From positions 1 through 59,735 of the forward strand of contig CAIRXZ010000247.1 of NCBI GenBank assembly GCA_903882645.1: a stretch of DNA of 59,735 nt. Reading direction: 5' to 3'. The translations under genes and the position numbers were made by a program. Of this stretch, positions 7,421 through 42,522 are shown piece after piece. How positions within the stretch are numbered: position 1 is the first letter of the stretch; every line of letters starts with the position of its first letter. The notes beneath the pieces were generated by a model, which saw nothing but the letters and a program-made list of their open reading frames with translations, searched no databases and was not told the DNA's origin. The stretch is from an uncultured Acidobacteriia bacterium (GTDB lineage Bacteria; Acidobacteriota; Terriglobia; Bryobacterales; Bryobacteraceae).

Positions 7421-7459
7421 GGGCGGGAAAAAACAAGGCTGTCCTCCAGCTCCAATGGA

Positions 7460-8991: not shown

Positions 8992-9067
8992 TCCAGGGTC
9001 GGCCGATAAACCGATGAGTGTAGCAAAGTGGAGCGGGCCTGCCGGCCTGCCTTCTTAACCTCGCCCC

Positions 9068-20981: not shown

Positions 20982-21821
20982 CTATTGCGGCATCAACAGC
21001 GCATGCGGGTAAAGCGCGCTAAACGGCCGGAAGTAGAGTATGCGATAACCGGAACCGGCGGCGGCAGCCTCGAGCTCACCCTGGGACGTGAGATGTATAA
21101 AGCCGACCCACGGCCAGAACACGTCGCCGGGATGTCGAGCCGACGGGGATCCTAGCAGCGCGCAAACCCGGCGGATGCCTGGGCGCAAACGATCCAGCCT
21201 TCCATTCTCCGCATCCCGCAACATCGAAAAGCTGAGCAGCAAAGGGGCCTTTGGCGCGATCATACGGGTGGCGCAAAGCAAGTCCTGCCGATCCAATTCG
21301 GTGAAAACATAGTCGAAGCTTGTCCAGCCGAAGAGAACCGCGTCGAAAGAAGCGTCGAGGACGTGGGCTGCCAGCGGCCCGGTATGCTCTTGCGCGGCGG
21401 TCACGAGGTCGCGGTAGGAAGCCCGGACCACGGCGCTGTTCGGGGAGGATGAAACCGCCCGGCGGGCGCCCTCGCAAAGCTGCCCGGATGGTTCGAAGGC
21501 CACCACATCGAAGCCCATCCGGCATAACTGAACGAGTTCCCTCCCGCCGCCGGCGCCCCCGAGCAGGATCCGCCCGGCCGGTGGAAATGGAGGTTCGGTA
21601 ATGGCACGCCGCTCCCAGTCGAAGAGTCCTCTTTCGAAGGTGGCTCCCCCAGGCAGGTAGGTGCCCGCCCTCCCACAGATGATCTGGTTGACAGCCTCAC
21701 GCCGCTGTGGGCCAAACCAAGCCCAGAGCACCTCGTCCCAAAAGATGGTGTGAAGGCGCGTCGCCGCACTCAGGGCGCGTTCGGCGGCAAAGGACATTCG
21801 GGCTAAAGGCGGCAGTCGCAC
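20982..21821 (-). CDS. SAM-dependent methyltransferase-like protein, copy 2
   Basis: A 279-residue paralogue of the adjacent upstream gene (21887-22735). The shared core is 'GRILLGGAGGGREL', 'GFDVVAFEPS', 'FDAVLFGWTSFDYVFTE' and 'APLLLSF'. The glycine-rich loop and the acidic residue at the end of strand 2 fit a class I methyltransferase, though the usual Asp of motif I (LDxGxGxG) is replaced by Gly. Both copies end in a near-identical tail ('YPHALLMPQ' versus 'HPHALLMPQ'). It is the last gene of the peptide-modification operon. The substrate is unknown; the modified peptide is one possibility. Confidence 0.7.
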   Translation of the reverse strand: MRLPPLARMSFAAERALSAATRLHTIFWDEVLWAWFGPQRREAVNQIICGRAGTYLPGGATFERGLFDWERRAITEPPFPPAGRILLGGAGGGRELVQLCRMGFDVVAFEPSGQLCEGARRAVSSSPNSAVVRASYRDLVTAAQEHTGPLAAHVLDASFDAVLFGWTSFDYVFTELDRQDLLCATRMIAPKAPLLLSFSMLRDAENGRLDRLRPGIRRVCALLGSPSARHPGDVFWPWVGFIHLTSQGELEAAAAGSGYRILYFRPFSALYPHALLMPQ

Positions 21822-21886
21822 GAATCGTATGCAGCGGAGGCGCCAGCGCGGGCAAGCGCTCTGATAGGCCTGGCGCGCGAGGGGAG

Positions 21887-22735
21887 CTATTGCGGCATCA
21901 ACAGCGCGTGGGGGTGAGGGGTGGTCTCTTGGCGGCAGTAGACTATGCGATAACCGGAACGGTCCGCGACGGTCCGGATCTCATCGAGAGTCAAGTAATG
22001 GATGAAACCGTTCTCCAACATGAACCTGTCGCCTGGGCGTCGAGACGACGGCGCCTTCAATAGCTCGAAAAGGCGGCGGAGGAGTGGGCGTAAACGATCC
22101 AGCCTTCCGGTTTCCGCGCCCTGGTGCCCGGGCAGGAAGCTGAGCAGCAGAGGAGCTCTTGGCGCAATCGCGCGGGCGGTTCGAAGTAGAGCGTAACGAT
22201 CCGATTCGGTGAAAACATAATTGAAGCTTGCCAGGCCGAAGAGGACCGCGTCGAAGGAAGTGTTAAGGACGTGGGCAGCCAGCGGCCCGGTCCGCTGTTC
22301 CACCGCGGTTACAAGGTCCCCAAAGGATGCGCGTACTACCGTGCTTTTCGGATAGGCCGAGACGATCTGTCGCGCGCTCTCGCAAAGCCGCTCGGATGGT
22401 TCGAAGGCCACCACATCGAAGCCCATCCCGCACAATTCACGCAGTTCCCGCCCGCCGCCGGCGCCTCCGAGCAGGATCCGGCCACCCGAGGGAAATGGAG
22501 GCGTGGCGAAGGCTGCTCGCTCCCAGTCGAAGAGCCCTATTTCGAAGACCCACCCGCCGGGGAGGTAATTGTCCTTTCCGCAGTACACAGCCCGGTTGAC
22601 AGCCTCACGCTGCGGCGGGGGCGTCCAGGCCCAGAGAACCTCTTCCGAGAGAAGACGCTGCAGGCGCTCCACCGTATTCCGGATCCGCTCACTAGCCAGG
22701 GCTATCCGGACTAAAACCGGCAGTTGTTGGGGCAT
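21887..22735 (-). CDS. SAM-dependent methyltransferase-like protein, copy 1
   Basis: A 282-residue protein similar over its whole length to the next gene downstream, 65 bp away: a clear tandem duplication. It carries 'GRILLGGAGGGRELRELCGM' (binding loop), 'GFDVVAFEPSERLCESARQI' (acidic residue) and 'FDAVLFGLASFNYVFTESDR'. The N-terminal 60 residues ('LLSEEVLWAWTPPPQREAVN') are conserved in both copies and may be a substrate-recognition region. It starts 43 bp after the nucleotidyltransferase gene, so it is most likely in the same transcript. Confidence 0.7.
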   Translation of the reverse strand: MPQQLPVLVRIALASERIRNTVERLQRLLSEEVLWAWTPPPQREAVNRAVYCGKDNYLPGGWVFEIGLFDWERAAFATPPFPSGGRILLGGAGGGRELRELCGMGFDVVAFEPSERLCESARQIVSAYPKSTVVRASFGDLVTAVEQRTGPLAAHVLNTSFDAVLFGLASFNYVFTESDRYALLRTARAIAPRAPLLLSFLPGHQGAETGRLDRLRPLLRRLFELLKAPSSRRPGDRFMLENGFIHYLTLDEIRTVADRSGYRIVYCRQETTPHPHALLMPQ

Positions 22736-22778
22736 GCGCGGAATATGAAGCTGTTCGGCCCGCGCGGGGGCGCAATAA

Positions 22779-23915
22779 CTAAGACCGGGCGCGGCGGTTC
22801 AGGTTAACAATCGGCCGGATGCACCACAGCCAGGCGAGGCGGACCGGCTTGGCCAGATAGTAAACAGGGAACATGGACTCGGGGATGCCGAAGAATTCCC
22901 AGTCGTTGGCGTTGGGGTGGAGGGAGTACCAGAAGAAAAGGAATTTGCGCCAGCCTTCCAGCAGCCGGAATCTGAGAATCAGCAGGTCTTGCGAACTGGA
23001 CGCACGGCCATCCTGAAGCTGTGCGCGGATGGATGCGGCGAGCGCCACGGCGCGGGCATCGCCGTGGATGCGGCTCGATACCTCCGGCGGCAGGTTCGAA
23101 CCCATCAAGTCTTGCGCGAGGCAGAGACCCAGCGAAACGATTCGCGACATGCGTTGCCGCGCGGCGCGCGACAGAATCGCGTCCCAATCCAGCCGGTAGA
23201 CATCGATAAGCCGGCCCAGATCGCTGAGCCCAATCAACGAGATCCAACCATGCGTTGCACCATGCACGCACAGGTAAGCGAGCAGATCTTCCGGGCAGAA
23301 TGCCGGCATCAGGCGCCCAGCCACATTGATGGGCGCGAGCCGGGCGCGAATTTCCGCCGCATTGAGCGGATTGAAGTGAGCCGGCGCGACCCGCCAGTGG
23401 ATCTCGACGGTAAATTCTCCGTCGGTGCCCTTGAAAACCAACTGACCGGCGTCCGAAAAGAACCGCAAACCGATACTTGGGCCAAGTCGCCGGTAGCCGT
23501 TTGAAGTTAGAAGATCGATGGCGTGACTTACGTCGCGTTGCGGAACGAGCAGGTCCAGGTCCGCCATACGGCGCAGCCCAGGCGTCTCGTATAGCGACCA
23601 GGCTAGCGCGGGGCCCTTGAATGGGATGGTCTGGATGCCAGCCGGGCCGAACAAATCCAGGAGACGGAGGAGTTCTTTTGCAAAGCGGAGATTCCGTTTG
23701 ATGTTCTGCCGGAAGCAATTCCGGAGAGCGGCCAGCGCCTCGGGTGGAACCGCGTCCGGGCAGGCCCGATTCAGCGCCCAGAACACCAAGGGAGCGACCC
23801 CCCGTTGCGAGGCGGACCCGATAAGACCGTCCCAGTCCGAACAAAGACCGGAGAGGCGGCGGAGCTCGCCAGGATCGGGGTGAGCGCGGGCGCACTCAAT
23901 AAGCAGCAGGATCAC
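22779..23915 (-). CDS. Nucleotidyltransferase family protein (PF14907 type)
   Basis: About 378 residues from GTG 23915, which overlaps the end of the radical SAM gene by 20 bp. The open frame continues upstream, but that part is only a shadow of the radical SAM gene. The signature 'TIPFKGPALAWSLY' followed by 'GLRRMADLDLLVPQRD' matches the uncharacterised nucleotidyltransferase family PF14907 (KGxxL..Y...R.M.DxDLLV). Later 'EIHWRV' and 'LCVHGATHGW' are also typical. This family is common in lasso-peptide and other RiPP clusters next to PqqD and HprK-like genes. The reaction is unknown; nucleotidyl transfer to the peptide or a cofactor is possible. Confidence 0.82.
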   Translation of the reverse strand: MILLLIECARAHPDPGELRRLSGLCSDWDGLIGSASQRGVAPLVFWALNRACPDAVPPEALAALRNCFRQNIKRNLRFAKELLRLLDLFGPAGIQTIPFKGPALAWSLYETPGLRRMADLDLLVPQRDVSHAIDLLTSNGYRRLGPSIGLRFFSDAGQLVFKGTDGEFTVEIHWRVAPAHFNPLNAAEIRARLAPINVAGRLMPAFCPEDLLAYLCVHGATHGWISLIGLSDLGRLIDVYRLDWDAILSRAARQRMSRIVSLGLCLAQDLMGSNLPPEVSSRIHGDARAVALAASIRAQLQDGRASSSQDLLILRFRLLEGWRKFLFFWYSLHPNANDWEFFGIPESMFPVYYLAKPVRLAWLWCIRPIVNLNRRARS

Positions 23916-25089
23916 GATGCATGCCGTCTCGCGGCGCCGGGAGCAAGGCTGCCAGCGGAACGAATTGGCCGGAGACGGGTGGGTGGCGCTCTGGCGCGGG
24001 GTCGAGATCCGTCGCGGGATACAAAGGCGTGGGAACCTTCGTCCGGAAATACGTGCTCTCGCAATCCTGGCTGGACGCGCCGTGCATATTGCCTTCCTGG
24101 AAGGCCAGCCCGGGACAGCGGCGGCAGGAAGACAGGCTTGAGCAGGAACTGCAGACCTGAAGATCGCGATTCCGAATGCCGCGAACTTCGGCGAATTGGG
24201 GCGATTTCCAGATTTCCAGAAAACTGCCGCGGCGCAGGCTGCCGCAAACCAGCGGGAACTGCACGCACGGCGTGACATCTCCCTGCGGTGAGATGTAACA
24301 CCTGAGATGGCCCGCTCCGCAAGAATGCCCGTTCAGCAGTTCTTCTCCGGCTGGCGCGGGCGGTGCGCAGTCGTCTTCCAACCCGATCAGTACCGCTGGA
24401 TCCGCGTAGAATTCCGCGCGTTCCGCGGGGGAGAGATTGAGCGATACGGGCGTCCGGTCTCCGTCCATCATGGGTATGATGGTGGGATCGTACAGGATCC
24501 TGGCCCCCACCTCTTTCGCCAGAGCGCGCAGGCGCGCGTAGTTGGCCCCGCCCTTCATAACGGGGACGCGAATTTCCACCGCCAGGCCGCGACTCGTCAG
24601 TCGCTTCACCGCCTCGATGGAAAGGGCGAACGATCCCGGAACCCGCGTGATGGCGTCGTGAGCCTCGGCCAGGTGGGAATAGATGCTGATGTGGACTTCG
24701 CGGACCCCGAGTTCGGCGAAACGGTCCGCCTCGCCGTCGCCAATCAGGACGCCGTTGGTCTTCAGCCTCACGTCGAACAGCAGCGACCGCGCGTGGGCCA
24801 CAATCTCGAAGATGTCCTTCCGCAGCATGATCTCCCCGCCGCTTAGCGTAAGGAACATCGCTCCGGCCGCGGCCAACTGGTCGAGCGCGCCCTTGACCTC
24901 GGCGGTGTCCATGTCGCCGCCCACGCTGTGGTCGAGAAAACAATGCACGCAGCCCTCGTTGCACCTCCAGGTGAGATCCAGATGGACGGAAATCGGAATC
25001 ACTCGGGCCTCGGCCTTCGCGCCGATCCGGCCCAGTAAGGAGGTCTGTGTTCCCCCTCCGGCGGTTGTGATGGAGACTGCATCGGTCAT
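23896..25089 (-). CDS. Radical SAM-SPASM peptide maturase
   Basis: A 397-residue radical SAM enzyme. The cluster motif is C43-x3-C47-x2-C50 ('WRCNEGCVHCFLD'), followed by 'LTLSGGEIMLRKD' (SAM-binding GGE). The C-terminal SPASM region, from about residue 265 to 350, carries many cysteines ('CGAGHLRCYISPQGDVTPCV', 'CSSCSSLSSCRRCPG') for auxiliary iron-sulfur clusters. Such PqqE/AlbA-like enzymes make carbon-carbon, thioether or epimerised linkages in ribosomal peptides. The PqqD gene directly upstream (6-bp gap) supplies the usual leader-recognition partner. The substrate is likely the small peptide at 27561-27725. Confidence 0.88.
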   Translation of the reverse strand: MTDAVSITTAGGGTQTSLLGRIGAKAEARVIPISVHLDLTWRCNEGCVHCFLDHSVGGDMDTAEVKGALDQLAAAGAMFLTLSGGEIMLRKDIFEIVAHARSLLFDVRLKTNGVLIGDGEADRFAELGVREVHISIYSHLAEAHDAITRVPGSFALSIEAVKRLTSRGLAVEIRVPVMKGGANYARLRALAKEVGARILYDPTIIPMMDGDRTPVSLNLSPAERAEFYADPAVLIGLEDDCAPPAPAGEELLNGHSCGAGHLRCYISPQGDVTPCVQFPLVCGSLRRGSFLEIWKSPQFAEVRGIRNRDLQVCSSCSSLSSCRRCPGLAFQEGNMHGASSQDCESTYFRTKVPTPLYPATDLDPAPERHPPVSGQFVPLAALLPAPRDGMHRDPAAY

Positions 25090-25095
25090 CGGCGC

Positions 25096-25389
25096 CTACC
25101 TCGCTGATTCAATGGGCTGATCGGAGATCACCAGGATGCCGTAGTCCGCCAGCCTGCGGCAGAGATCCTCAGCGTCCGCGTAAGCGGCTTCCGGCTCGGC
25201 TTCGAATTTTGCGCACACCTTGTCTTGAACGATCTGTGAGAGGGGGGTGCGTCCATCGGCCGCCAGCCAGATCTCGGTGGCCACCTCATTCAGGGTGAAC
25301 AACATCGAGTCCGACGTGGACATGATGATCATCTCCCCGTCCAGGGCCCGCGCCGCGATCGAGCGGCTTTTTGCTATGTACATGCTCAT
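25096..25389 (-). CDS. PqqD-family RiPP recognition element
   Basis: A 97-residue protein from ATG 25389, whose ATGA overlaps the stop of the kinase gene; an upstream in-frame extension to 25449 is not used. 'ARALDGEMIIMSTSDSMLFT' then 'LNEVATEIWLAADGRTPLSQ' is the PqqD pattern (beta strands, L-N-x-x-A/T-x-x-I-W). 'DAEDLCRRLADYGILVI' is the usual C-terminal helix and strand. PqqD domains bind leader peptides and present the core to a radical SAM enzyme. It sits between the kinase and the radical SAM gene. Confidence 0.88.
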   Translation of the reverse strand: MSMYIAKSRSIAARALDGEMIIMSTSDSMLFTLNEVATEIWLAADGRTPLSQIVQDKVCAKFEAEPEAAYADAEDLCRRLADYGILVISDQPIESAR

Positions 25390-26183
25390 CCGATCATCTC
25401 CCAGACTTCGGGGGTAGGAGTGAAAACAAGCCGATAGGCCGGCACGCAAGCCGCGATTCGGCAGGCAGTCTCGAACAGGGCCTCGGATAGTTTCGGATCC
25501 TTGGCGAAAAACAAAATGTTCCGCATCAGGGCGTTAACGGCCTGCTTGCGAGAGAGGGGTTCGATCCTGTTCTCAGGACCTTTGGCAAGCAGATACAGCG
25601 CCTCGAGAGGCGCCGATATGTTTTTTCCGGCTACGCCCAGATCGCCGGCGAAAGGCGTGCCAAATGCTCTGTAGACTCCGTCCACGGAGCGGATGTGAGA
25701 GATTTCGTCCGTGAGGAGAACGACATCGGGGGGCGCCAGGCCCGCCAGCGTGCTCTTGCCGGCGCCGGATACCCCGGTGAATACAAAGGCGCGCCCGTTG
25801 CGCACAGCGCTGGCGGCGTGCAACAGGCAGCCTCCTTGGGGCGCCAGCAGAATCGAGTGGAGAACGCGCAGGACCGCATCGATGGATTCAGGGAAAGCCG
25901 CCGACTGTCTTAGCCACCCGCGGCCGGAGCCGGAAAACCACTCGGCCCGGGAATCGAAAACCTCCAATAACCACCGCCCTTCCCGCCATTCGACGCGCAC
26001 TTGATTGCCCTGATAAACGCCCCCATCCGGAGTTACCGTCACGGTCAGCTCAAAAGGCTCGGCGGAGGGCTTGGTCGTGAGGTAGGCGGCATACCGCTTG
26101 TCAATGAACTCCAGGAGTGCGCGATCCTGCACGCCCAGAAGCACGGGGATTCCTCCGATTTCGACAATGCTCCCGGGTATCAT
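25386..26183 (-). CDS. HprK-like serine kinase of RiPP clusters
   Basis: 265 residues from ATG 26183, overlapping the peptidase stop by ATGA. The P-loop 'GVSGAGKST' is at residues 137-145, preceded by 'LLHAASAVRNGRAFVF', the layout of HPr kinase/phosphorylase-like proteins of peptide clusters. 'VLLTDEISHI' follows as a Walker B-like strand. In the lasso peptide paeninodin pathway a homologous kinase phosphorylates the C-terminal serine of the precursor. The candidate precursor here also ends in Ser-Ser. Coupled translation with its neighbours supports a shared pathway. Confidence 0.82.
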   Translation of the reverse strand: MIPGSIVEIGGIPVLLGVQDRALLEFIDKRYAAYLTTKPSAEPFELTVTVTPDGGVYQGNQVRVEWREGRWLLEVFDSRAEWFSGSGRGWLRQSAAFPESIDAVLRVLHSILLAPQGGCLLHAASAVRNGRAFVFTGVSGAGKSTLAGLAPPDVVLLTDEISHIRSVDGVYRAFGTPFAGDLGVAGKNISAPLEALYLLAKGPENRIEPLSRKQAVNALMRNILFFAKDPKLSEALFETACRIAACVPAYRLVFTPTPEVWEMIG

Positions 26184-26698
26184 GCCGCCAGTGTCTCCCT
26201 GTCGCCCCTCGCACGGTTCAACTTCAGGCGGAGCGAATTCAAACGCAAGGCAAAAGCCTTGACTGGGGCGCAATACCGCATCAGCAAGGACAAGAATCTC
26301 GCGGGTCCCTTCAGTTTTTCTTTAGGGGCGAATTGCGCTCCGCTACGTTCGATCATAGCAACCTTGCCAAGCACTTGACTGAAGGGGAGGGGCTCGTCGT
26401 TCACGCGGAGAGAATCGCCGCGAGTGGTAAATGTATCTCCCCCCTTCTTAACGATCCGGTGGACCAGAAAATCCCCCTCTCTGGCGTAGAGTACGAGATC
26501 GCCGGGTTCCATATCGGCGGGCGCCGCGCGCCGGACCAAAAGAACATCGCCCGGCCAGATCGATGGAAGCATGCTGCCTCCAAAGACCCGCAACCGGAGC
26601 TTGCCGGAGGCGCGCAACGCCTCCGCCGCGACTTCACACCGGATTGCTTGCCGCGTAGCAGAGCCCTCGGGATCTGCTTTCTCGGGCCCGTCACTCAT
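26180..26698 (-). CDS. S24/S26 signal-peptidase-like protease
   Basis: A 172-residue protein. 'GGSMLPSIWPGD' around residues 40-51 carries the nucleophile Ser42, and 'FLVHRIV' has His80 where the archaeal/eukaryotic (SipW/Sec11) branch uses His as the general base. 'RGD' at 93-95 is the conserved GD box. This suggests a Ser-His type signal peptidase without the usual N-terminal membrane anchor; a weakly hydrophobic C-terminus is all that could tether it. Such genes recur beside PqqD/HprK cassettes and may cleave the leader. Cleavage of the PEP-CTERM protein is less likely, since exosortases do that. Confidence 0.8.
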   Translation of the reverse strand: MSDGPEKADPEGSATRQAIRCEVAAEALRASGKLRLRVFGGSMLPSIWPGDVLLVRRAAPADMEPGDLVLYAREGDFLVHRIVKKGGDTFTTRGDSLRVNDEPLPFSQVLGKVAMIERSGAQFAPKEKLKGPARFLSLLMRYCAPVKAFALRLNSLRLKLNRARGDRETLAA

Positions 26699-26849
26699 CT
26701 GAAGTCGGCAAAATATCGCGCGGGAAATAAAGCGAAACGCTTGCCACTGGCGGCTGTGGAGGCGGGTATTCCAGCAAGTTTGATTACAGAGGAAAGTTCT
26801 CTAGGGGCAAGCCGACACGTGGTGCTTGAAACGAAAACTCAAAAGTGAA

Positions 26850-26880
26850 AGGCCCGGGCATGCCCAGCCCGAAGCGTTGA
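26850..26880. repeat. Dispersed palindrome within the peptide operon
   Basis: 'ggcccgggcatgcccagccc' contains the palindrome GGGCATGCCC at 26856-26865 and is followed by 'gaagcgttga', matching the sequence after the 10653 copy ('gaagccttga'). It lies in the 204-bp gap between the PEP-CTERM gene and the peptidase gene and could be a partial terminator or an RNA-processing hairpin. Confidence 0.6.
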
Positions 26881-26902
26881 ACAACTCAAACGGTCGCGGT
26901 AT

Positions 26903-27538
26903 TTAGGAAGCGACGCGCCGCCGGTAGGCAGCCAACATGGCCAGACCGATTGCGCCGAGCAGAATTGTCGAGGGTTCTGGCGCCTGGAAGCCACTGACTT
27001 GCATCTGATAGGTCCAGTCGTAGTCGGTGTTGGCAAACGTCCCATAGACCGGCACATTCCAGTACTCGCTCGAAACTCCGGTGCCGCCCGTTTCGTAAGT
27101 CACATCCCACGCAGCCGTCGTGGTCGTCGTGCCAACGGAGGAAACCCCAATCCAATACCGGCCAGGAGTGTCGAGAAGGAAGCCCCCGATGAAATCGAAG
27201 TCGCCGGTCAGCGAACTTGCGATGGAGGTGTCGGTAAGTGTTCCCAAAGAATACAACTGCCCAGCCGGGGATGTCATCGAATCCGAATAGATGCCGATGT
27301 GAAGAGCTCCGGTGGGAGGCGGGCTCGCGGGCGCGTTTAGCAACAGTTGTATGTCGGTCACCACAAAGTCGGGGTTGACAGTCGAGAAGCTGGAATACAC
27401 GGAAGTCTGGACGACGGAGCCAGTGTAGTCGGTGGAACTCGGGGGATTCGTTATACTATCGAAGACCGTAATGGTGTTCGCATAAGCGAAACCGAAGAAC
27501 GCGGGCAAGCAAATCAACGTAGCCAAAAGTTTTTTCAT
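26903..27538 (-). CDS. PEP-CTERM sorted exported protein
   Basis: 211 residues from ATG 27538, preceded by GAGAGG at good spacing; the open frame to 27619 overlaps the peptide gene and is rejected. The N-terminal signal peptide is 'MKKLLATLICLPAFFGFAYA'. The body ('SSTDYTGSVVQTSVYSSFS', 'GRYWIGVSSVGTTTTTAAW') looks like a choice-of-anchor beta-sandwich. The C-terminus 'APEPSTILLGAIGLAMLAAY' then RRR is a complete PEP-CTERM signal: PEP motif, membrane helix, Arg cluster. Exosortase would process it, but no exosortase gene is in the window. It starts 22 bp after the precursor-like gene, in the same transcript. Confidence 0.88.
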   Translation of the reverse strand: MKKLLATLICLPAFFGFAYANTITVFDSITNPPSSTDYTGSVVQTSVYSSFSTVNPDFVVTDIQLLLNAPASPPPTGALHIGIYSDSMTSPAGQLYSLGTLTDTSIASSLTGDFDFIGGFLLDTPGRYWIGVSSVGTTTTTAAWDVTYETGGTGVSSEYWNVPVYGTFANTDYDWTYQMQVSGFQAPEPSTILLGAIGLAMLAAYRRRVAS

Positions 27539-27560
27539 CTCGACCTCTCGTATCGCCCCT

Positions 27561-27725
27561 TCAGGAAGATATGCCCTTGTTGGGGCAGTGCAGCGCGGTG
27601 CTCTCGAAAACCTGCTCACAAGAAAACTCCGGCTTTACATACGGCCGCCGCGGTGCCGGACGCTCCGGATGCTCAATCCTTTCGTTCGATTCGCGGTTGC
27701 TCATTCGGCTATCACCTTCGATCAT
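27561..27725 (-). CDS. Candidate RiPP precursor peptide
   Basis: A 54-residue peptide from ATG 27725, with AGGAG six bases upstream; the frame to 27830 has no such site. The N-terminal half is polar and charged (leader-like). Residues 29-34 are YVKPEF, which fits the Y-x-x-P-x-(L/F) leader motif bound by PqqD-type recognition domains in lasso peptide systems. The C-terminal part has Cys36 and Cys47 and ends in 'CPNKGISS', with two terminal serines. Short peptides with 'KPxF..E.VFE..AL.C' are recalled near PqqD/HprK/radical SAM cassettes in Acidobacteriota and related bacteria. It is the first gene of the operon. The modification is unknown. Confidence 0.75.
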   Translation of the reverse strand: MIEGDSRMSNRESNERIEHPERPAPRRPYVKPEFSCEQVFESTALHCPNKGISS

Positions 27726-27918: not shown

Positions 27919-29859
27919 TCAGCTCCCGGCGATGGCCGGCCGGCTTTTCGCCGGTTGTTCCGTTGGCAGACTCATCACCTGCCGCAGGAGGTGGGCGCTG
28001 GGATTATAGTCTATAATTAAGTCCTTTAATTCCAATATTATATCGGTAATATTGCGATCCGCGCAGAGGCTCCGGAGCTTCTCGACCCGCTCCAGCGCGC
28101 CGCGCTCCGGAAGGCCGTGGTTGGCGAAGATTTTGATTTTTGGGTGGAACGTGGGCCGCATCTCTTCATCCAGATGGGCGAGCTCCTCGTAGAGCTTTTC
28201 GCCGGGGCGGATGCCGGAAAACACAATCTTGATGTCCTCGCCGGGCCGTAGGCCCGAAAGCAGGATGAGATTGCTGGCCAGATCCAAAATCCGGACCGGT
28301 TGGCCCATGTCCAGAACGAAGATTTCGCCGCCCTTGCCCATGGTGGAAGCCTGAATGACGAGTTGGGCAGCTTCCGGGATCGTCATGAAGTACCGGCGCA
28401 TCTCCGGATGCGTGACGGTGACGGGCTTGCGCGCAGCGATCTGCTGCTTGAAAAGGGGGATCACGCTCCCGTTACTGCCCAGGACGTTGCCGAAACGAAC
28501 GGAGACGTACTTCGTGCCGCCGTCCTGAAGGGCGTGGATCAGCAGCTCGGCGGCGCGCTTGGTAGCCCCCATGACGCTGGTCGGGCGAACCGCCTTGTCG
28601 GACGAGATCATGACGAAGTCGGCGATCCCGCTCTCCGCCGCGGCGATGGCCACATTCCAGGTCCCGATCACGTTGTTTTCCACGGCCTCGAACACGTGGT
28701 CCTCCATCAGGGGGACGTGTTTGTAGGCCGCGGCGTGGTAGAGGATCGAAGGCCGGTATTTTCTGAAAACCTCGGCCAGCCGCTGCGAATTGCGGATATC
28801 GCCAATCTCGGGGCGGAACCTGAGGCCGGGAAAGCTCTCGCTCATCTCGCGGTCGATATAAAAGAGGGCGGTTTCCGCGCAGTCGTAAGCGACGATGGCC
28901 GCGGGGCGGAACCGGGCGATCTGGCGGCACAACTCGGAACCGATGGACCCGGCCGCTCCGGTGACGGCAATCACTTTGTTTTCAATCTTTTCACGGATTC
29001 CGGATTCGTCGAGATGAACCGGATTGCGGCCCAGCAGGTCCTCCACGTCGACGTCGCGGATACCCGAGGCGAGGTTGCCGGATTCGAGGATTTCCGTAAA
29101 GCTGGGGACGGTCTTGTAAACGACGCCGGCTTCCTGGCAGCGCTTGAGGATGGCCGTCATTTCCCGGCCCGTGGCGGAGGGCATGGCAATCAGGACCGTG
29201 TCGATGCCCTGGGCTTTCACGATAGACGGCAGAGCCTCGCCATTTCCAAAGACCTTGACCCGATAAATCAAAGAGCCGGTCTTGACCGGATTGTCGTCCA
29301 CGAAACCGGCTACGTCGTAGGCGAGAGCGGGATTCTGACGGATTTCGCGCAACAGCGACACTCCCGCGTCGCCCGCTCCGTAGATGAGCGCCCGTTTTTT
29401 TTCGCTTCGGTTCACTGTTCCGGAGAACTCAAAGAGCATCCTCGCCGCCAGGCGGACTCCCGCCGTCGCGACGAAGCAGACCAGGAAATCCACGAAATAG
29501 AGGGAGCGCGGGAAGCCCCGCGTCGCAAACAGCAGTATGCCGGCGCCTCCCAGCGCCGATCCGGCAAGATTGGCGTAGGCGACGCGGAGCAGGTCCGGAA
29601 CGGAAACGTAGCGCCACCACCCGCGGTCCAACCCGAACAACTGAAAGACCAGAATCTTGGCGATCGCCCATATGCAGATCCCAGCCCATAGGTGCGCGCG
29701 GTGCTCCTTCGGGATGGCGAAGTCGAACCGAAGCAGGAAGGCCGAGACGCCGGCGAACAGGAAAATAGTTAATTGGACCCCAATCAAGGTCCACCGCCTA
29801 AACCGGTTCAGACGGTACCCCAAGTGCTGGAACCCAATTAAAACCTCAAATTTGGGCAT
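27919..29859 (-). CDS. CapD/WbpM-like nucleotide-sugar 4,6-dehydratase (membrane)
   Basis: A 646-residue protein. Four membrane helices occupy about residues 20-140, then a CoA-binding-like Rossmann domain ('KRALIYGAGDAGVSLLREI'). The catalytic SDR domain begins 'VIAVTGAAGSIGSELCRQI' and has 'SSDKAVRPTSVMGATKRAAE', where Met replaces the usual catalytic Tyr, the hallmark of the WbpM/PglF/CapD group. The product is a UDP-4-keto-6-deoxy-N-acetylhexosamine, a starting sugar for capsule or O-antigen repeat units. It is the last gene of the minus-strand exopolysaccharide operon, 21 bp after the initiating transferase gene. Confidence 0.9.
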   Translation of the reverse strand: MPKFEVLIGFQHLGYRLNRFRRWTLIGVQLTIFLFAGVSAFLLRFDFAIPKEHRAHLWAGICIWAIAKILVFQLFGLDRGWWRYVSVPDLLRVAYANLAGSALGGAGILLFATRGFPRSLYFVDFLVCFVATAGVRLAARMLFEFSGTVNRSEKKRALIYGAGDAGVSLLREIRQNPALAYDVAGFVDDNPVKTGSLIYRVKVFGNGEALPSIVKAQGIDTVLIAMPSATGREMTAILKRCQEAGVVYKTVPSFTEILESGNLASGIRDVDVEDLLGRNPVHLDESGIREKIENKVIAVTGAAGSIGSELCRQIARFRPAAIVAYDCAETALFYIDREMSESFPGLRFRPEIGDIRNSQRLAEVFRKYRPSILYHAAAYKHVPLMEDHVFEAVENNVIGTWNVAIAAAESGIADFVMISSDKAVRPTSVMGATKRAAELLIHALQDGGTKYVSVRFGNVLGSNGSVIPLFKQQIAARKPVTVTHPEMRRYFMTIPEAAQLVIQASTMGKGGEIFVLDMGQPVRILDLASNLILLSGLRPGEDIKIVFSGIRPGEKLYEELAHLDEEMRPTFHPKIKIFANHGLPERGALERVEKLRSLCADRNITDIILELKDLIIDYNPSAHLLRQVMSLPTEQPAKSRPAIAGS

Positions 29860-29880
29860 GATAATCTCTATCGCCTTCTT

Positions 29881-30951
29881 CTAGACCTGCGGTTCGGCGG
29901 GCACGCGAACTTCAGCCTCGGGACGCGTAACTTCTTTGGCGGATGTATCCCGCCCGGCGTCGTAGCGAAATACCGCGCAGGCCAACGGAGCCAAGGCAAC
30001 CGCGGCGAATACAGGTCCGGCCGCTGGCCAAACGCACGCCCCCCACGCAAGCGGGAACAGCCAAACCACGTTGACTGCCGCGATGGTCAACGTCACTTTC
30101 GAATGGCTGCCCCACTGCCGGGCGGCGTGCTGATAGGCGTGACTGCAATGCGCCTCGTACCACCGCACCCCGGTAATCAGGCGCCTGATCAGCGTCACGA
30201 TGGAATCCACAACGAAGACTGACAGCAGAATCAGCCAGGGCCAGATCAGCCACGGTCGCTCTTTGGCGCTCGAAATGGCCAGAACGCCGAACACAAACCC
30301 CAGGAACCCACTGCCCACGTCACCCATGAAAATCTTGGCGGGTGGCCGGTTCCACACCAGAAAACCGGCGCTGGCGCCCGCAAGCGCCATTGCGGCCTGC
30401 GCCAGGCCTCCGAGCCCGTTCCACGCCAAAAGCAGACCGCCCAACCCGCTGGCGCAGAGAGCTTCCAGCCCTGCAAGGCCGTCGATACCGTCCATGAAGT
30501 TATAAAGATTGATCATCCAGACCAAGCCGACAAGCGCAAGAAACTGGCCAACCCAGCCCCAATCCCAGATCATCCAGCCCAAGTGCAGCGGCCCCATCCC
30601 ATGGAGGCGCCACAAAGCCCATCCGGCAGCCGCGAAGTGAATCAGCAGGCGCAGCCAGGCCGATACCCGGGAATGGTCGTCCAAGAAGCCCACTGCGGCG
30701 ACCGCCAGTCCACCTCCGAAAAGCGCTGATCCCAGACCGGTGGATATGGCGCCTCTCTGCACGAACAGCAGAACTGCCGAGAGAAACACCACAACAATGC
30801 TTACGCCGCCCCCCCGCGGCGTTGGCGCCAAGTGAGAACTGCGCTCATTTGGGATATCCAGAATTCTTTGCCTGACGAGATAATGCCGTACCAGCAAAGT
30901 GACGAGCGCCGAGCCCAGAAAGGAGACGACAATTATGCCCATCAGAAACAT
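29881..30951 (-). CDS. WecA/WbpL-like polyprenyl-phosphate sugar-phosphate transferase
   Basis: A 356-residue polytopic membrane protein of the MraY/WecA family. Typical motifs are 'DIPNERSSHLAPTPRGGGVS', 'NLYNFMDGIDGLAG' and 'KIFMGDVGSGFLGF' (catalytic Asp residues). It moves an N-acetyl-6-deoxyhexosamine-1-phosphate or GlcNAc-1-phosphate to undecaprenyl phosphate, starting repeat-unit assembly. The pairing with the CapD-like gene just downstream is the standard WbpL-WbpM arrangement. The gene starts five bases after the stop of the GT4 gene upstream. Confidence 0.9.
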   Translation of the reverse strand: MFLMGIIVVSFLGSALVTLLVRHYLVRQRILDIPNERSSHLAPTPRGGGVSIVVVFLSAVLLFVQRGAISTGLGSALFGGGLAVAAVGFLDDHSRVSAWLRLLIHFAAAGWALWRLHGMGPLHLGWMIWDWGWVGQFLALVGLVWMINLYNFMDGIDGLAGLEALCASGLGGLLLAWNGLGGLAQAAMALAGASAGFLVWNRPPAKIFMGDVGSGFLGFVFGVLAISSAKERPWLIWPWLILLSVFVVDSIVTLIRRLITGVRWYEAHCSHAYQHAARQWGSHSKVTLTIAAVNVVWLFPLAWGACVWPAAGPVFAAVALAPLACAVFRYDAGRDTSAKEVTRPEAEVRVPAEPQV

Positions 30952-30956
30952 CGTAG

Positions 30957-32174
30957 CTACTTTGGCTGAGCGTCGCTTCGAAGCTGGCCAGGGTGAGCTT
31001 TCGAATTGGACACGTTAGCTGGCCAGCCACTTTGCAGCATCTCCAGGTAGAGGGCTTCAATTTGGCTCCATACAGACTCGCATTGGAATGACTCCTTCAC
31101 GCGGAGAAAGCCCCGCTCACCTAGCCGCATGGACATAGAGGGGTCGCCAAGCACGAGCGATAGTGCCCCGGACAATGCGCTGCAATCCCCGACCGGCACA
31201 AGCAGGCCGTTCACGCCGTCGACTATCGAGTCGACCAAACCAGTGACCCGTGTGCCGACCACAGGTCGCTTAGCGCAGTGCGCCTCGAGTACGACAGTGC
31301 CGAACCCCTCCCTATAGCTTGGAAGCGCCAGTACATCCATGATGTGGTAGTAAGGCGCTGTGTCCGCAACGAAACCGGTCATGATGATACGTGGATGATC
31401 TGCGATAGTCCGGCGAATTTGTTCGGGAACCGGGTCGTCGTCCTCGAAACCGCCCACGAGGAGGAGCCGGCAGTCTTCGAATTGGGGAGGAAGTGCGAGA
31501 AAGGCCGTGACGAGTTCGCCGACGCCTTTGTCGCGGGTTAGGCGGCCGACGTGGCCAACCACCCGCGTGTGCTCCGGAATCTGCAACTCTGCGCGGATCC
31601 GAGATGCCTGAGCAAGGCGCTCTGGGGTGGCAATGAATCGGGAACAATCGACTCCGTTAGCGCTTCCAGCGCCCAGGACCACCGCCTTGCTGGGCGGTAA
31701 TAGCCGCGCCGCCACCGCAACGTCTCGGACGCTTGGGCTAACACACGGCACTACGGTCGCGGTTCTACATGCAATACGCTCGGCTAGGCTCAGAATTCGG
31801 CGTTTTAATCCATGTGTAGTTTCCAGGCGAAGCCCATGCAGCCAGTAAACCCTGTAGGGTACGCGAGCAAACCAGCCAGCTAGCCCGGCCAACAGTCCCG
31901 CCTTTGGCGTACCGATATTCACGATATCGGGGCGGACTCTACGCATCATGGCGAAGAGCCGCCACAACGATCTCAGGTCGTGGAGTGGCGAGATCTCGCG
32001 ATGTATCGTAATCGGTATTACGGTTACATCTTCGGCCAGAGCCAACCGGCGCAGATCTTCGCTTGGTGACGCCGCGACGATTACCTCGAAGCCTCGCCGC
32101 CTAAAATACAGGCATTGGCCGCGTAGCACTACGGCGGTGCTGAAAGCTATCGCGGAAACATAAAGTACTCGCAT
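30957..32174 (-). CDS. GT4 glycosyltransferase
   Basis: About 405 residues from ATG 32174 ('MRVLYVSAIAFS'); a GTG four codons upstream is possible. The fold is GT-B: N-terminal acceptor domain, then 'RVVGHVGRLTRDKGVGELV' and the nucleotide-sugar site 'LPSYREGFGTVVLEAHCAKR' (E-x7-E type, family GT4). It most likely adds the second or later sugar to the lipid-linked repeat unit made by the WecA/WbpL-like enzyme downstream. Donor and linkage cannot be told. Confidence 0.85.
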   Translation of the reverse strand: MRVLYVSAIAFSTAVVLRGQCLYFRRRGFEVIVAASPSEDLRRLALAEDVTVIPITIHREISPLHDLRSLWRLFAMMRRVRPDIVNIGTPKAGLLAGLAGWFARVPYRVYWLHGLRLETTHGLKRRILSLAERIACRTATVVPCVSPSVRDVAVAARLLPPSKAVVLGAGSANGVDCSRFIATPERLAQASRIRAELQIPEHTRVVGHVGRLTRDKGVGELVTAFLALPPQFEDCRLLLVGGFEDDDPVPEQIRRTIADHPRIIMTGFVADTAPYYHIMDVLALPSYREGFGTVVLEAHCAKRPVVGTRVTGLVDSIVDGVNGLLVPVGDCSALSGALSLVLGDPSMSMRLGERGFLRVKESFQCESVWSQIEALYLEMLQSGWPANVSNSKAHPGQLRSDAQPK

Positions 32175-32235
32175 ACGGCTCAGCACTTCTATCGCTTGCG
32201 GGTATCTAAATCGCCCACGCCTGTTCGCTAACCGG

Positions 32236-33105
32236 CTAGGTTGGGAGCGGGCAGGAAAGGACCCTGGCCAAGGCGGCCTCCGCTTGCTGGCGCTGATCGG
32301 GCGTTAGGCGTTGGTAACGGCGGGCCACAATTTTATCGGCGTTGTCGGCCGTGTCGTATAAGGAAACCAAAAACAGTTTGACGATGATCTTGAGCAGGGT
32401 GGCTGTGTAGCGGGTTCGCGGGCGGCTGAATCGCGTCCGCAATAGGAAGAGCAGCCCGAGCTGCGAACCGATGTAGTTCTCGTACGAGAAGACTCCGGCT
32501 TCGCGATAGTAGAGGAGCGCCTCATGGAGGTTCACAAAAGTGCTCGAACATGCGGTGCGGCACCAGAGTTCGACATCCTGAGCTCGATGGTAAGCAAAAG
32601 ACTCGGAATAGGGATGTCGCCGGAACCACTCCGTCGCGGCGGCTACGGATGGGTGAATGAAGGGTGCATCAAGTAGCGCAGGGGCGGCGGCTGGGAGATA
32701 CCGAAGGCCAACGATATTCGAGTTGGCGTCGATCGAGTAAGCATTACATCCGATGACCGTGTCACTGTCGCAGCGGACTAATTCGGCGTACTGCCGCTCA
32801 AGGCGTTCCGGGTGCATGATATCGTCTGCGTCCATGCGAAACAAATACGGCGCCCGCGCCAGACCCACGAGTTCGTTGAACCGGATGTTCATGCGCTTGT
32901 TCAAGCCATCGCTGTACACGCGGACGCGTGGGTCCTTGATGCTCCGCGCCAGCGCCAGCGAGTCGTCGGACGACCCATCGTCCATCAGAATCAGTTCCCA
33001 GTCGGTGAACGTCTGTGCGAACACGGACTTTAGGGCCAAGCTGAAGTAGTATCTTCCAGGATTCCGGAAGGAGATGCCAATCGTAACCTTGGGTGCCGAA
33101 GACAA
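32236..33105 (-). CDS. GT2 family glycosyltransferase
   Basis: About 289 residues from TTG 33105, which has GAGGTG just upstream; a TTG at 33138 immediately after the epimerase stop adds 11 residues. GT-A motifs are 'TIGISFRNPGRYY', 'ELILMDDGSSDDSL' and the metal-binding 'LFRMDADDIMHP'. It would add one sugar to the repeat unit in the cytoplasm. Neither start has an ATG, so the N-terminus is uncertain. Confidence 0.8.
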   Translation of the reverse strand: MSSAPKVTIGISFRNPGRYYFSLALKSVFAQTFTDWELILMDDGSSDDSLALARSIKDPRVRVYSDGLNKRMNIRFNELVGLARAPYLFRMDADDIMHPERLERQYAELVRCDSDTVIGCNAYSIDANSNIVGLRYLPAAAPALLDAPFIHPSVAAATEWFRRHPYSESFAYHRAQDVELWCRTACSSTFVNLHEALLYYREAGVFSYENYIGSQLGLLFLLRTRFSRPRTRYTATLLKIIVKLFLVSLYDTADNADKIVARRYQRLTPDQRQQAEAALARVLSCPLPT

Positions 33106-33138
33106 ACATTCACCTCTCAAGCCAGATGGACCCTGCAA

Positions 33139-34125
33139 TTACGAGGTGCCATCGCCTGCGCCTCCGCGCTTCGCCGAGGCCACGAAACGGCGAATTCCTT
33201 CGGCGATGGCCATGGTTGGACGATAGCCGAGGAGGGTTCCCGCTTTGGCGATGTCGGCGCAGGTCACCGTTATGTCGCCGACAGCGGGATCGGTGTATTG
33301 GCGGTTCGCACTCCTGCCCACAGCTTCTTCTACAAGGGCCACCATAGCGTCGAGCGAGATCGGCCGCGCACTGCCCAGGTTGAACACGTCGTAGCCGGTT
33401 GGAGGCTCATACGTCATCGCGGCAAGAACGCCGGAGAGGATGTCGTCGATCCAGGTGTAGTCGCGGGCGCTGCTGGCATTGCCAAACAACTGTATCGGCT
33501 CACCGTCTCCGATTAAGTGAACAAACTTACCGATGGCCAGATCCGGGCGTTGCCTCGGCCCATATACGGTGAAGAAGCGCAAAACTACGCCCTGAAGTCC
33601 GTAACAATTGACGAACGAATGCAGCATCGCTTCCCCGGCCAGTTTGGTCGCGGCATACGGCGACGCGGGGCTGAGTAATAGGGCGTCTTCGCGGAACGGA
33701 ATGGCGCTGAGCGTACCATAGACTGAACTGGAAGAGGCGAAGACGACCTTCGGCGTTTTAAAGTCGCGGCAGGCCGCCAACACGTTCTCCATGCCGGCGA
33801 CATTTGTCGCGTAATAGAGTTCCGGGTTGTCCACCGAGAAGCGGACTCCGGTGCGCGCCGCCAGATGGACCACTGCGGCGGGACGAAACCCGGCAAAGAG
33901 ATCGCGCACCGCTGTGCGCTCGCAAATGTCGCCCAAGACGAAATCGAAGGCGCCAGCGCGGCCGATCTCGGCGAGGTTGGCCCGCTTCAGCCCGGGATCG
34001 TAAAAATCGTTTAGGTTATCGAGGACGGCAACTTTGCAACCGCGCCGAAGCAGCATGGAAGCAAGATGCGAGCCGATGAACCCGGCGCCACCCGTGATCA
34101 GCACGGTTTCAGGAAAGCTTTGCAA
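33139..34125 (-). CDS. NAD-dependent nucleotide-sugar epimerase (UDP-glucuronate 4-epimerase-like)
   Basis: About 328 residues from TTG 34125, preceded by AGGGGG; a GTG at 34170 gives 343 residues and overlaps the methyltransferase by 62 bp. The SDR-extended fold shows 'VLITGGAGFIGSHLASMLLR' (NAD binding), 'VVHLAARTGVRFSVDNP', the catalytic Ser in 'FASSSSVYG' and YxxxK in 'SPYAATKLAGE'. 'FFTVYGPRQRPDLAIGKFV' is typical of UDP-glucuronate 4-epimerases, although related 4-epimerases share it. It supplies a nucleotide sugar to the locus. Confidence 0.83.
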   Translation of the reverse strand: MQSFPETVLITGGAGFIGSHLASMLLRRGCKVAVLDNLNDFYDPGLKRANLAEIGRAGAFDFVLGDICERTAVRDLFAGFRPAAVVHLAARTGVRFSVDNPELYYATNVAGMENVLAACRDFKTPKVVFASSSSVYGTLSAIPFREDALLLSPASPYAATKLAGEAMLHSFVNCYGLQGVVLRFFTVYGPRQRPDLAIGKFVHLIGDGEPIQLFGNASSARDYTWIDDILSGVLAAMTYEPPTGYDVFNLGSARPISLDAMVALVEEAVGRSANRQYTDPAVGDITVTCADIAKAGTLLGYRPTMAIAEGIRRFVASAKRGGAGDGTS

Positions 34126-34861
34126 AGCTGGCCCCCTCGCTTGCAACCGGCTCGACAGCGGTTGGTCCACTAACCTGCATAATGAACGACATCATGGTTC
34201 GGCCGACTATATGATATTCCGTCGCCTGGATCGAGGGGTTCTTCGCCAACCATTCCTTGAAAGCTCTTGCTTCTCCACGGTCCCGCCGACCCTTGAAGGA
34301 AAACCAGTCATCGAAGATCACCACCGTCCCGTCTTGGATGTAATCAGTGATGAACTCCAGCACAGGGACCGTCGACTCGTACAGGTCGCAATCGACCCAT
34401 ACGACCGCAGCTTTCGTTATTGGCAGTTTCCGTTTGAGTTCTCCATTCAGAGTCTCGCTATACCAACCGGGAATACACGTGACTCGATCAAGATCGACTC
34501 CTCGCTGGTGGACAGTCCGCTTAAAGCGATCGAGGTTACAGGCATAGTCTCCCTTACTGTACCTACGGGATTCATTCGCATCTAAGCCCGTGGGTTCGGG
34601 CAATCCCTCGAATGAATCGAACACGAAAAATAGCATTTTGTTCAAACGCCGATACCGTCGCGCCGCGTAAAATGCGTCGGTGAGAGATCCCCCGCCAGCG
34701 CTTCCAAATTCCAGATAGCACCCTTCAACCCGACAGTCTTCAACGAACCCCATTACGATGTCGAATAATAGCAGACGCGACAGGTACTCTCGGCTGATGT
34801 TACAGATGCGCCCGGAAACGGGGCGCAGCAGTGTTCCCAGGAGTCGTCGCAGAACTCTCAT
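34109..34861 (-). CDS. TylF/MycF-family O-methyltransferase
   Basis: 250 residues from ATG 34861; the longer frame to 35011 overlaps the fucosyltransferase gene and has low complexity. Motifs are 'CYLEFGSAGGGSLTDAF' (SAM loop), 'FFVFDSFEGLPEP', 'VVWVDCDLYEST' and 'TVVIFDDWFSFKG' (metal-binding acidic residues), as in macrocin O-methyltransferase TylF. These enzymes methylate sugar hydroxyls, here probably on a repeat-unit residue or lipid-linked glycan. Confidence 0.8.
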   Translation of the reverse strand: MRVLRRLLGTLLRPVSGRICNISREYLSRLLLFDIVMGFVEDCRVEGCYLEFGSAGGGSLTDAFYAARRYRRLNKMLFFVFDSFEGLPEPTGLDANESRRYSKGDYACNLDRFKRTVHQRGVDLDRVTCIPGWYSETLNGELKRKLPITKAAVVWVDCDLYESTVPVLEFITDYIQDGTVVIFDDWFSFKGRRDRGEARAFKEWLAKNPSIQATEYHIVGRTMMSFIMQVSGPTAVEPVASEGASFAKLS

Positions 34862-34961
34862 AATTCCATTTGTCCTCGGTTGTTTTGGTTGAGACGGGTG
34901 GAAGCGCGCTCCTGGGTCTGGCGGGGATGAGAGAAAGTTGATCGCTGTCGGACGCGGGCGT

Positions 34962-35900
34962 TCACTTCCCAGTTCGGATGGCCTCTGGGGCTGTCTCGGC
35001 TGCGGGAACAACTGTCCAGGCAGGCGGGAAGAGATCGCGCGGGAAACGTCTCTCCCCGCGATTCCACACCGACGGAACGCACACCGTTTTCATCGGATGC
35101 CCCCCGAGCCAGGCGGCCCACCAACTGAACGCGCTGTTTGCGATGATGAAGTGCTTGCACAGCCGCATGAGATAGAAGCTCCGAAGCGGACCTTCGTCTA
35201 TCACTTTCACGCTGCAACCATCGGTTTCGAAGGCCCCCGCGTTTTGTTGAGACCAGCCAGTGTCGTCGCTGAAAACGAAGATCCTGAGATTCCCGTGAAT
35301 AGCGGCCACCTCGCGGATAGCGCGGCGATAGTATTCGATGTCGCACGTGCCGTAAAAATCGGCCACCGATTGCGGTCTCGATCCATCCGCTTCTTTCCCG
35401 TGCAGCCGCCGGATGTGCAGGCAGACGGAGTTCGCCTGCATGATCTCCCCGCTCGTCACATCGTTCAGCCCGGGCGGGATGCTCTTAAACTCCAGATCCC
35501 TGCGCAAGATTTCCTCGATCTCGCGGAAGTAGCGGGGGCTTTGGCAGTAGGCGTCAAGTACAGTCGGGCGCTTGATGCGCAAGTCGTAGATTGCCTGGTC
35601 GAAATACCGCCCGGCCCGCATCCTCCAGATCTCCCGCCGTCCAACGAACCTCCGAAATAGCTCGGCCCTGATGCCAAGGTCCGCGGAGGATACCGGCTCC
35701 GTTCTCTCATCCAGTACATTGAAACATCCGAGTTCGTAGGAGCGGCCGTAGCGGTCGCCACGGAAGCCGGATGTAGTGTCCAGGCGGAGCGGGATATGGT
35801 TTCGCAATGCCAGGGCGCGCCCGGCAGCGTACTCGAAAAGCTGGTTGCCAAGACCTCCGCGAAGCCGGAGCAACAACGCGGGTTCGCGTCTGCCGATCAT
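34962..35900 (-). CDS. GT11 fucosyltransferase-like protein (alpha-1,2)
   Basis: 312 residues from ATG 35900, whose ATGA overlaps the flippase stop. 'LLRLRGGLGNQLFEYAAGRA' near the start is diagnostic of GT11. 'VCLHIRR' corresponds to the HxRRGD motif but lacks the following Gly-Asp ('HIRRLHGK'), and 'NSAFSWWAAWLGG' is the conserved C-terminal block. The expected reaction is fucose (or L-galactose) transfer from the GDP sugar in alpha-1,2 linkage. No GDP-fucose synthesis genes are in the window, only a broken GDP-mannose 3,5-epimerase at 39411-40183. Confidence 0.83.
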   Translation of the reverse strand: MIGRREPALLLRLRGGLGNQLFEYAAGRALALRNHIPLRLDTTSGFRGDRYGRSYELGCFNVLDERTEPVSSADLGIRAELFRRFVGRREIWRMRAGRYFDQAIYDLRIKRPTVLDAYCQSPRYFREIEEILRRDLEFKSIPPGLNDVTSGEIMQANSVCLHIRRLHGKEADGSRPQSVADFYGTCDIEYYRRAIREVAAIHGNLRIFVFSDDTGWSQQNAGAFETDGCSVKVIDEGPLRSFYLMRLCKHFIIANSAFSWWAAWLGGHPMKTVCVPSVWNRGERRFPRDLFPPAWTVVPAAETAPEAIRTGK

Positions 35901-39395: not shown

Positions 39396-39410
39396 ACACG
39401 GCGCTGTCGG

Positions 39411-40183: not shown

Positions 40184-40284
40184 GGATCCTCCTTTCTGAA
40201 CCAGTTGTGAACTTTTTGTCATGCTAAGGCGCTCATCCTCTGGGGCGTCGGCTTCGCCTCCCGCCACTGCCAGCCGTCGGGAGG

Positions 40285-42510: not shown

Positions 42511-42522
42511 TGATTTACCCGT

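What the first reader, a model, noticed from the sequence alone, without database searches (positions are those of the whole stretch)
20982..27725. Putative undescribed RiPP pathway: precursor, PEP-CTERM protein, S26 peptidase, HprK-like kinase, PqqD, radical SAM, nucleotidyltransferase, two methyltransferases
Nine minus-strand genes, several with ATGA overlaps (peptidase-kinase, kinase-PqqD) or direct overlap (radical SAM-nucleotidyltransferase), combine elements known from different RiPP classes. PqqD plus radical SAM-SPASM is typical of sactipeptide/PQQ-like maturation, while HprK-like kinase plus PF14907 nucleotidyltransferase is known from lasso peptide clusters. The lasso cyclase (asparagine synthetase-like) and B2 protease are absent. 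The set therefore does not fit a standard class that I know.
Basis: partly seen in the sequence, partly recalled or inferred. Interest (0 to 1): 0.82.

Follow-up and report, generated by a model that had tools for sequence, protein, structure and literature searches.

The report
Radical-SAM phosphopeptide cassette in Acidobacteriota
A soil bacterium carries a gene set that probably turns a tiny protein into a chemically modified peptide of unknown role; over eighty related sets share its parts, and it combines two known peptide-making machineries not reported together in the papers I could search.

Summary
The genes are real: precursor, archaeal-type signal peptidase (S24/S26), HprK-like kinase, PqqD (RRE), radical SAM/SPASM enzyme and PF14907 nucleotidyltransferase, beside an exopolysaccharide locus. 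The core order precursor-peptidase-kinase-PqqD-radical SAM recurs in most of 86 distinct loci, nearly all from Acidobacteriota. A short precursor was found in 76. Its leader is YxKPxFRxExVFET; its core is xALxCGKxxxTQxxCxxxRKxS, and all but one end in serine. PEP-CTERM and methyltransferase genes are not part of the conserved set. No lasso cyclase lies on this contig.

The closest known system is the LPP family of Bacillota (Nat Commun 2026), which has the same peptidase, RRE, kinase and nucleotidyltransferase and a similar leader, but no radical SAM enzyme. Kinase plus nucleotidyltransferase also tailor paeninodin-type lasso peptides at a C-terminal serine.

Best reading: an LPP-like linear RiPP. 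A radical SAM enzyme modifies the core at conserved Cys/Lys. The kinase phosphorylates the terminal Ser. The nucleotidyltransferase adds a sugar or nucleotide. The peptidase cuts after FET (FES here). The chemistry is inferred. The window's own precursor lacks the second Cys. New variant of a known kind.

The parts
27561..27725 (-). precursor peptide gene, 54 aa: leader ..RRPYVKPEFSCEQVFES, predicted core TALHCPNKGISS
   Evidence: homologous to precursors in 76 of 86 distinct loci; dN/dS about 0.24 against the same-genus copy
26903..27538 (-). secreted PEP-CTERM protein, 211 aa, 22 nt after the precursor; accessory, not conserved
   Evidence: PF07589; related gene only in L026, 36% identity
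26180..26698 (-). archaeal-type signal peptidase I-like leader peptidase (S24/S26), Ser42, His80, Asp95/Asp101
   Evidence: catalytic residues 96-100% conserved in 79 homologues
25386..26183 (-). HprK-like kinase, His122, Lys143 (Walker A), Asp159
   Evidence: conserved in 81 homologues; PEPCK/HprK fold
25096..25389 (-). PqqD-type RiPP recognition element (RRE)
   Evidence: PF05402; profile hits lasso/LPP RREs TbiB1, PbaB1, TfuB1, LppB
23896..25089 (-). radical SAM/SPASM peptide maturase; C43/C47/C50 plus seven SPASM cysteines
   Evidence: PF04055 + PF13186; all ten cysteines invariant in 86 sequences
22779..23915 (-). PF14907 nucleotidyltransferase-like protein (PsmN/LppN type), GTG start inferred
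   Evidence: PF14907 197.5 bits; in 44 of 86 loci, position variable
21887..22735 (-). SAM methyltransferase-like protein 2; accessory
   Evidence: weak daptide_MTase and Methyltransf_23 matches
20982..21821 (-). SAM methyltransferase-like protein 1, paralogue of 2; accessory
   Evidence: weak matches; the same-genus locus L026 has one such gene, not two
27919..43467 (-). adjacent exopolysaccharide locus (WbpM-like, WecA-like, glycosyltransferases, Wzz, polysaccharide export): context, not part of the cassette

Best explanation
It is a RiPP biosynthesis cassette of the LPP/paeninodin logic with a radical SAM enzyme added. Inferred order: PqqD (RRE) binds the leader through YxKP; the radical SAM/SPASM enzyme modifies the core at the conserved Cys-x-Lys region (a Cys thioether is the likeliest product; a C-C link is possible); the HprK-like kinase phosphorylates the C-terminal Ser; the PF14907 protein adds a hexose or nucleotide to that phosphate; the archaeal-type signal peptidase, presented with the leader by the RRE, cuts after FET (FES in the window). 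In the window this would release TALHCPNKGISS with one Cys. Shown here: gene set, order, conservation of precursor and catalytic residues. Shown in relatives by others: YxxP-RRE binding, cleavage after FET, kinase and nucleotidyltransferase activities. Inferred: every reaction in this organism.
For: Precursor, peptidase, kinase, PqqD and radical SAM co-occur in fixed order in most of 86 distinct loci (76, 76, 81, 84 and 86 loci). In 75 alignable precursors Y, P, F11 and first Cys are 75/75, Lys 73/75, second Cys 73/75, C-terminal Ser 74/75, against 9-11% terminal Ser in ORFs of the same loci. A distant branch of precursors (..PYEKPAIIHTEKIEARAVSCSK..C..TS) ends in Ser in 12 of 12, several beside kinase-PqqD-radical SAM. 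Catalytic residues conserved. The RRE profile matches RREs solved with YxxP or WxxP leaders. LPP: LppS cleaves after F-E-T, LppK phosphorylates Ser, LppB binds YxxP (PMC13381572). Paeninodin/pseudomycoidin: kinase acts on C-terminal Ser, PsmN adds hexoses to it (PMC9266682). Purifying selection on the precursor.
Against: No product is known. Three loci (L052, L064, L082) lack the kinase yet keep the terminal Ser. Five loci (L036, L100, L102, L107, L110) have no linked precursor; in G413 precursor and enzymes are unlinked. About half the loci lack a linked PF14907 gene. In LPP the phosphorylated residue is Ser3 of the core, not the C-terminus. The window has FES instead of FET and no second Cys. 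LppN was inactive in the heterologous host.
Confidence: 0.62

Rival explanations
1. The peptide is mainly a radical SAM product (sactipeptide- or PQQ-like), and the kinase and nucleotidyltransferase do something else, such as modifying a polysaccharide precursor or a carrier.
For: Kinase absent in three loci and PF14907 gene in about half, while PqqD and radical SAM are the most constant genes. Top PDB sequence match of the radical SAM is SkfB, then PqqE.
Against: Kinase present in 81 of 86 loci in fixed order, and the terminal Ser is nearly invariant as in kinase-bearing lasso precursors (PMC9266682).
Confidence: 0.2
2. The peptide is a phospho-Ser anchor or primer for surface glycan: kinase and PF14907 protein load it with sugar, and it joins the exopolysaccharide or a secreted partner (PEP-CTERM protein here, beta-propeller elsewhere).
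For: The cassette abuts an exopolysaccharide locus here and LPP lies in capsule loci; PsmN adds hexoses; a secreted beta-propeller is linked in 42 of 86 loci.
Against: The polysaccharide context was verified only for the window and not surveyed in other loci; the radical SAM step is unexplained; no such beta-propeller was found in the window genome.
Confidence: 0.12
3. Lasso peptide with the cyclase supplied from elsewhere in the genome.
For: Lasso-type RRE and YxxP leader; the same genome has Asn synthetase-like genes beside PqqD on two other contigs, C44 and C361.
Against: No cyclase on the contig; the conserved core does not fit a lasso core (Gly1/Asp ring) and the window core is 12 aa; a radical SAM enzyme is linked in the cassette; the C44 cluster has its own lasso-like precursor.
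Confidence: 0.04
4. Chance neighbourhood of unrelated genes next to an exopolysaccharide locus.
For: PEP-CTERM and methyltransferase genes are indeed not conserved.
Against: The core order recurs in most of 86 loci at roughly 40-60% protein identity, with a homologous precursor.
Confidence: 0.02

Closest known systems
LPP, 'linear polyphosphorylated peptides' of Bacillota (Popov et al., Nat Commun 2026, PMC13381572)
   Same: Archaeal-type SpI-like peptidase with Ser/His/Asp, discrete RRE, HprK-like kinase, PF14907-type NTP transferase, no cyclase; leader YxxP...FET; found in polysaccharide loci.
   Different: LPP has no radical SAM enzyme reported, is described from Bacillota, phosphorylates Ser3 of a 45-aa core and has an MsbA-like transporter. 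Here: Acidobacteriota, radical SAM/SPASM, Cys...Cys...Ser-COOH core, leader two residues shorter between YxxP and FET, ABC-2 exporter or beta-propeller partner in many loci; RRE nearer TbiB1 than LppB by score.
Paeninodin / pseudomycoidin lasso peptides
   Same: HprK-like kinase acting on a conserved C-terminal Ser, PF14907-type protein, lasso-type RRE, YxxP/WxxP leader.
   Different: No macrolactam cyclase and no transglutaminase-like B2 protease among the cassette genes; radical SAM and S26-type peptidase instead.
SynChlorMet cassette (NCBIfam ScmC/ScmD/ScmE/ScmF)
   Same: HprK-like protein, PqqD-like protein and radical SAM/SPASM together; ScmC is the best NCBIfam match of the kinase.
   Different: All matches far below curated cut-offs (kinase 42.5/125, PqqD 23.8/100, radical SAM 78.1/400); one radical SAM enzyme here. 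Cassette content of SynChlorMet is from memory; no paper on it in the library.
Sactipeptides / SkfB, PqqE and GeoRSP radical SAM maturases
   Same: Radical SAM + SPASM with a PqqD-type RRE and Cys-containing core.
   Different: No equivalog cut-off reached; kinase and S26-type peptidase are not part of these systems (from general knowledge).

Membership tests
LPP | archaeal-type SpI-like peptidase with Ser-His-Asp | tested here: met
   TIGR02228 51.8 bits, cut-off 51.85; S42, H80, D95/D101 96-100% conserved
LPP | discrete RRE plus HprK-like kinase plus PF14907-type protein | tested here: met
LPP | leader motif YxxPxVLxHQxIxFETxxS | tested here: inconclusive
   YxxP and F-E-T shared by the family; spacing two residues shorter, middle differs, window has FES, Ser3 absent
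LPP | RRE inside the LPP clade | tested here: inconclusive
   profile scores TbiB1 38.9, PbaB1 27.6, TfuB1 24.5, LppB 19.6 bits; no RRE tree built
LPP | MsbA-like exporter in the cluster | tested here: not met
   no ABC gene matched in the window cassette; ABC-2 type exporter in about 24 other loci
LPP | phosphorylated Ser in the product | not testable with these tools
   needs mass spectrometry
Lasso peptide | macrolactam cyclase (PF00733) in the cluster | tested here: not met
   none on the contig; nearest on other contigs
Lasso peptide | transglutaminase-like B2 protease | not tested
   none among the annotated cassette genes; no dedicated search with PF13471
Sactipeptide / other radical SAM RiPP | radical SAM + SPASM with intact cluster cysteines | tested here: met
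   ten cysteines invariant
Sactipeptide / other radical SAM RiPP | thioether crosslink in the product | not testable with these tools
   Cys conserved, chemistry unknown
SynChlorMet | curated cut-offs of ScmC, ScmD, ScmE/F | tested here: not met
   42.5/125, 23.8/100, 78.1/400 bits

The most novel reading that the evidence does not exclude
A new RiPP class of Acidobacteriota whose product carries both a radical-SAM-installed crosslink and a (poly)phosphorylated, possibly glycosylated C-terminal serine, and which acts with a secreted beta-propeller partner in many species.
Probability: 0.4. Interest if true: 0.75.

Novelty: new variant of a known kind. Interest (0 to 1): 0.62.

Why it matters
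If true, LPP-type logic (S26-type leader peptidase + RRE + HprK-like kinase + PF14907 protein) is not confined to Bacillota and can host a radical SAM enzyme, so it is a portable chassis. The near-invariant C-terminal Ser and Cys-x-Lys make direct, cheap predictions for mass spectrometry, and the linked beta-propeller and exporter genes give a first handle on what such peptides do in soil Acidobacteriota, whose peptide chemistry is little known.

Tried and rejected
Lasso cluster: rejected, no cyclase on the contig. The nine-gene unit: rejected, PEP-CTERM and methyltransferases not conserved. A Pfam or NCBIfam family for the precursor: none for 18 precursors. The downstream SBBP beta-propeller (16120-20286) as equivalent of the beta-propeller partner of other loci: not supported, A7 finds nothing in four genomes of the genus, though that search had no positive control. 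Papers on SynChlorMet or on radical SAM + HprK + PqqD: none in the library. No HprK structure appears among the 50 rows shown for the kinase model, all PEPCK; this does not exclude it. The beta-propeller model is only moderate (pLDDT 66) but matches BamB- and YxaL-like propellers. The rSAM tree is the quick one; the placing of long branches is unsure.

Full report
OBSERVATION. The nine genes are there, at the stated place and strand, with the two ATGA overlaps. Pfam confirms radical SAM + SPASM, PqqD, S24/S26 peptidase, PF14907 and PEP-CTERM. The kinase is recognised only weakly by sequence, but its AlphaFold model (pLDDT 93.7) has the P-loop kinase fold of PEPCK/HprK. The window is a whole contig, the cassette lies over 20 kb from its left end and over 30 kb from its right end, and no Asn synthetase-like gene is on it.

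WHAT IS CONSERVED. After removing three duplicates, 86 loci remain. In them: PqqD 84, kinase 81, peptidase 76, PF14907 protein 44. The order precursor, peptidase, kinase, PqqD, radical SAM is fixed in nearly all. PEP-CTERM occurs only in the window and the same-genus L026; methyltransferases in these two and L030.

PRECURSOR. An HMM from six seeds finds one in 77 of 89 loci, i.e. 76 of 86 distinct ones; several of the rest are cut by contig ends. Consensus: KKPYxKPxFRYERVFETMALSCGKxxxTQxxCxxxRKxS. In 75 alignable sequences Y, P, F11 and first Cys are invariant, Lys 73, second Cys 73, final residue Ser 74; L053 and L057 also end in Ser, and the exception, L034, seems frameshifted. Other ORFs of these loci end in Ser in 9-11% of cases; the sequences are related, so no probability should be read into this, but the residues just before the end vary freely. 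A distant branch in other families of the phylum (..KKPYEKPAIIHSEKVEARAVQCAKSDAGSCGPNGPITS) ends in Ser in 12 of 12 (found with a profile that includes the last column), several beside kinase-PqqD-radical SAM (L145, L148, L151, L159). Further divergent loci have hand-found candidates of the same shape (L033, L155, L157). Only the window and L026 lack the second Cys. Window against L026: dS 1.13, dN 0.28, so the short ORF is under purifying selection.

ENZYMES. Peptidase S42, H80 and D95/D101, kinase H122, K143 and D159, and all ten radical SAM/SPASM cysteines are 96-100% conserved. The PqqD profile finds, among solved structures, the lasso and LPP RREs TbiB1, PbaB1, TfuB1, LppB, then PqqD. The radical SAM protein reaches no curated cut-off; nearest solved sequences are SkfB and PqqE.

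COMPARISON. The LPP paper (PMC13381572) describes in Bacillota a cyclase-free set of SpI-like peptidase, RRE, HprK-like kinase, NTP transferase and exporter, in capsule loci, with leader YxxPxVLxHQxIxFETxxS, cleavage after T-1 by LppS (Ser, His, Asp) and phosphorylation of Ser3. Radical SAM, SPASM and Acidobacteria do not occur in its text. In paeninodin-type lasso peptides the kinase phosphorylates the C-terminal Ser, and PsmN adds hexoses to it (PMC9266682). The cassette here joins these: LPP-like leader and peptidase, paeninodin-like terminal Ser, and a radical SAM enzyme acting on a Cys-containing core. No paper in the library holds radical SAM, HprK and PqqD together; most subscription papers are missing from it.

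NEIGHBOURS. A secreted beta-propeller protein without Pfam match lies beside the cassette in 42 loci, usually just upstream of the precursor or downstream of the radical SAM gene, and an ABC-2 exporter directly upstream in about 24. The two labels cluster on the radical SAM tree. The window has neither; its neighbours are a PEP-CTERM protein and an exopolysaccharide locus.

MECHANISM AND LIMITS. Steps as in Best explanation. Shown: gene set, order, conserved residues, selection. Inferred: every reaction. Against a strict kinase-Ser link: L052, L064 and L082 lack the kinase but keep the Ser. Five loci lack a linked precursor, and in G413 precursor and enzymes are unlinked. Whether the window's one-Cys, 12-residue core is a working variant or a decaying one is open; purifying selection and intact enzymes favour a working variant.

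Noticed in passing
L161 (G000:C44:9001-20586), about 6644-9958: A separate lasso-like cluster in the same genome: PqqD, Asn synthetase-like gene, weak kinase match, and a lasso-like precursor MLDKKTYLAPRLISYGSVAKLTKAKSGPQTD.. . Two YxxP RiPP systems thus share one cell, as in the LPP paper.
   Followed up: partly
G000:C361, 51272-53566 (L015): Another PqqD gene with an Asn synthetase-like gene, and a PF14907 gene about 10 kb away.
   Followed up: no
L105 3934-6177 and 41 other loci: Family of secreted beta-propeller proteins without Pfam match, C-terminus ..CAVQASQSALQ, next to the cassette.
   Followed up: partly
L146, L147, L149, L150, L152, L153: Second branch of precursors (PYEKPAIIHTEKIEARAVSCSK..C..TS), no cassette enzyme detected within the fetched 10-14 kb; L147 has two copies in tandem.
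   Followed up: no
L141 about 6208-6690; L142 7131-7373: Stand-alone precursor copies away from the radical SAM cassette in G222 and G413.
   Followed up: no
window 16120-20286: 1388-aa SBBP beta-propeller protein with DUF7948, conserved at the same place in the same-genus locus L026 (81% identity).
   Followed up: partly
L038 10534-13356 and about 20 other loci: GGDEF/HD/PilZ protein of about 940 aa on the opposite strand downstream of the radical SAM gene in one branch of the family.
   Followed up: no
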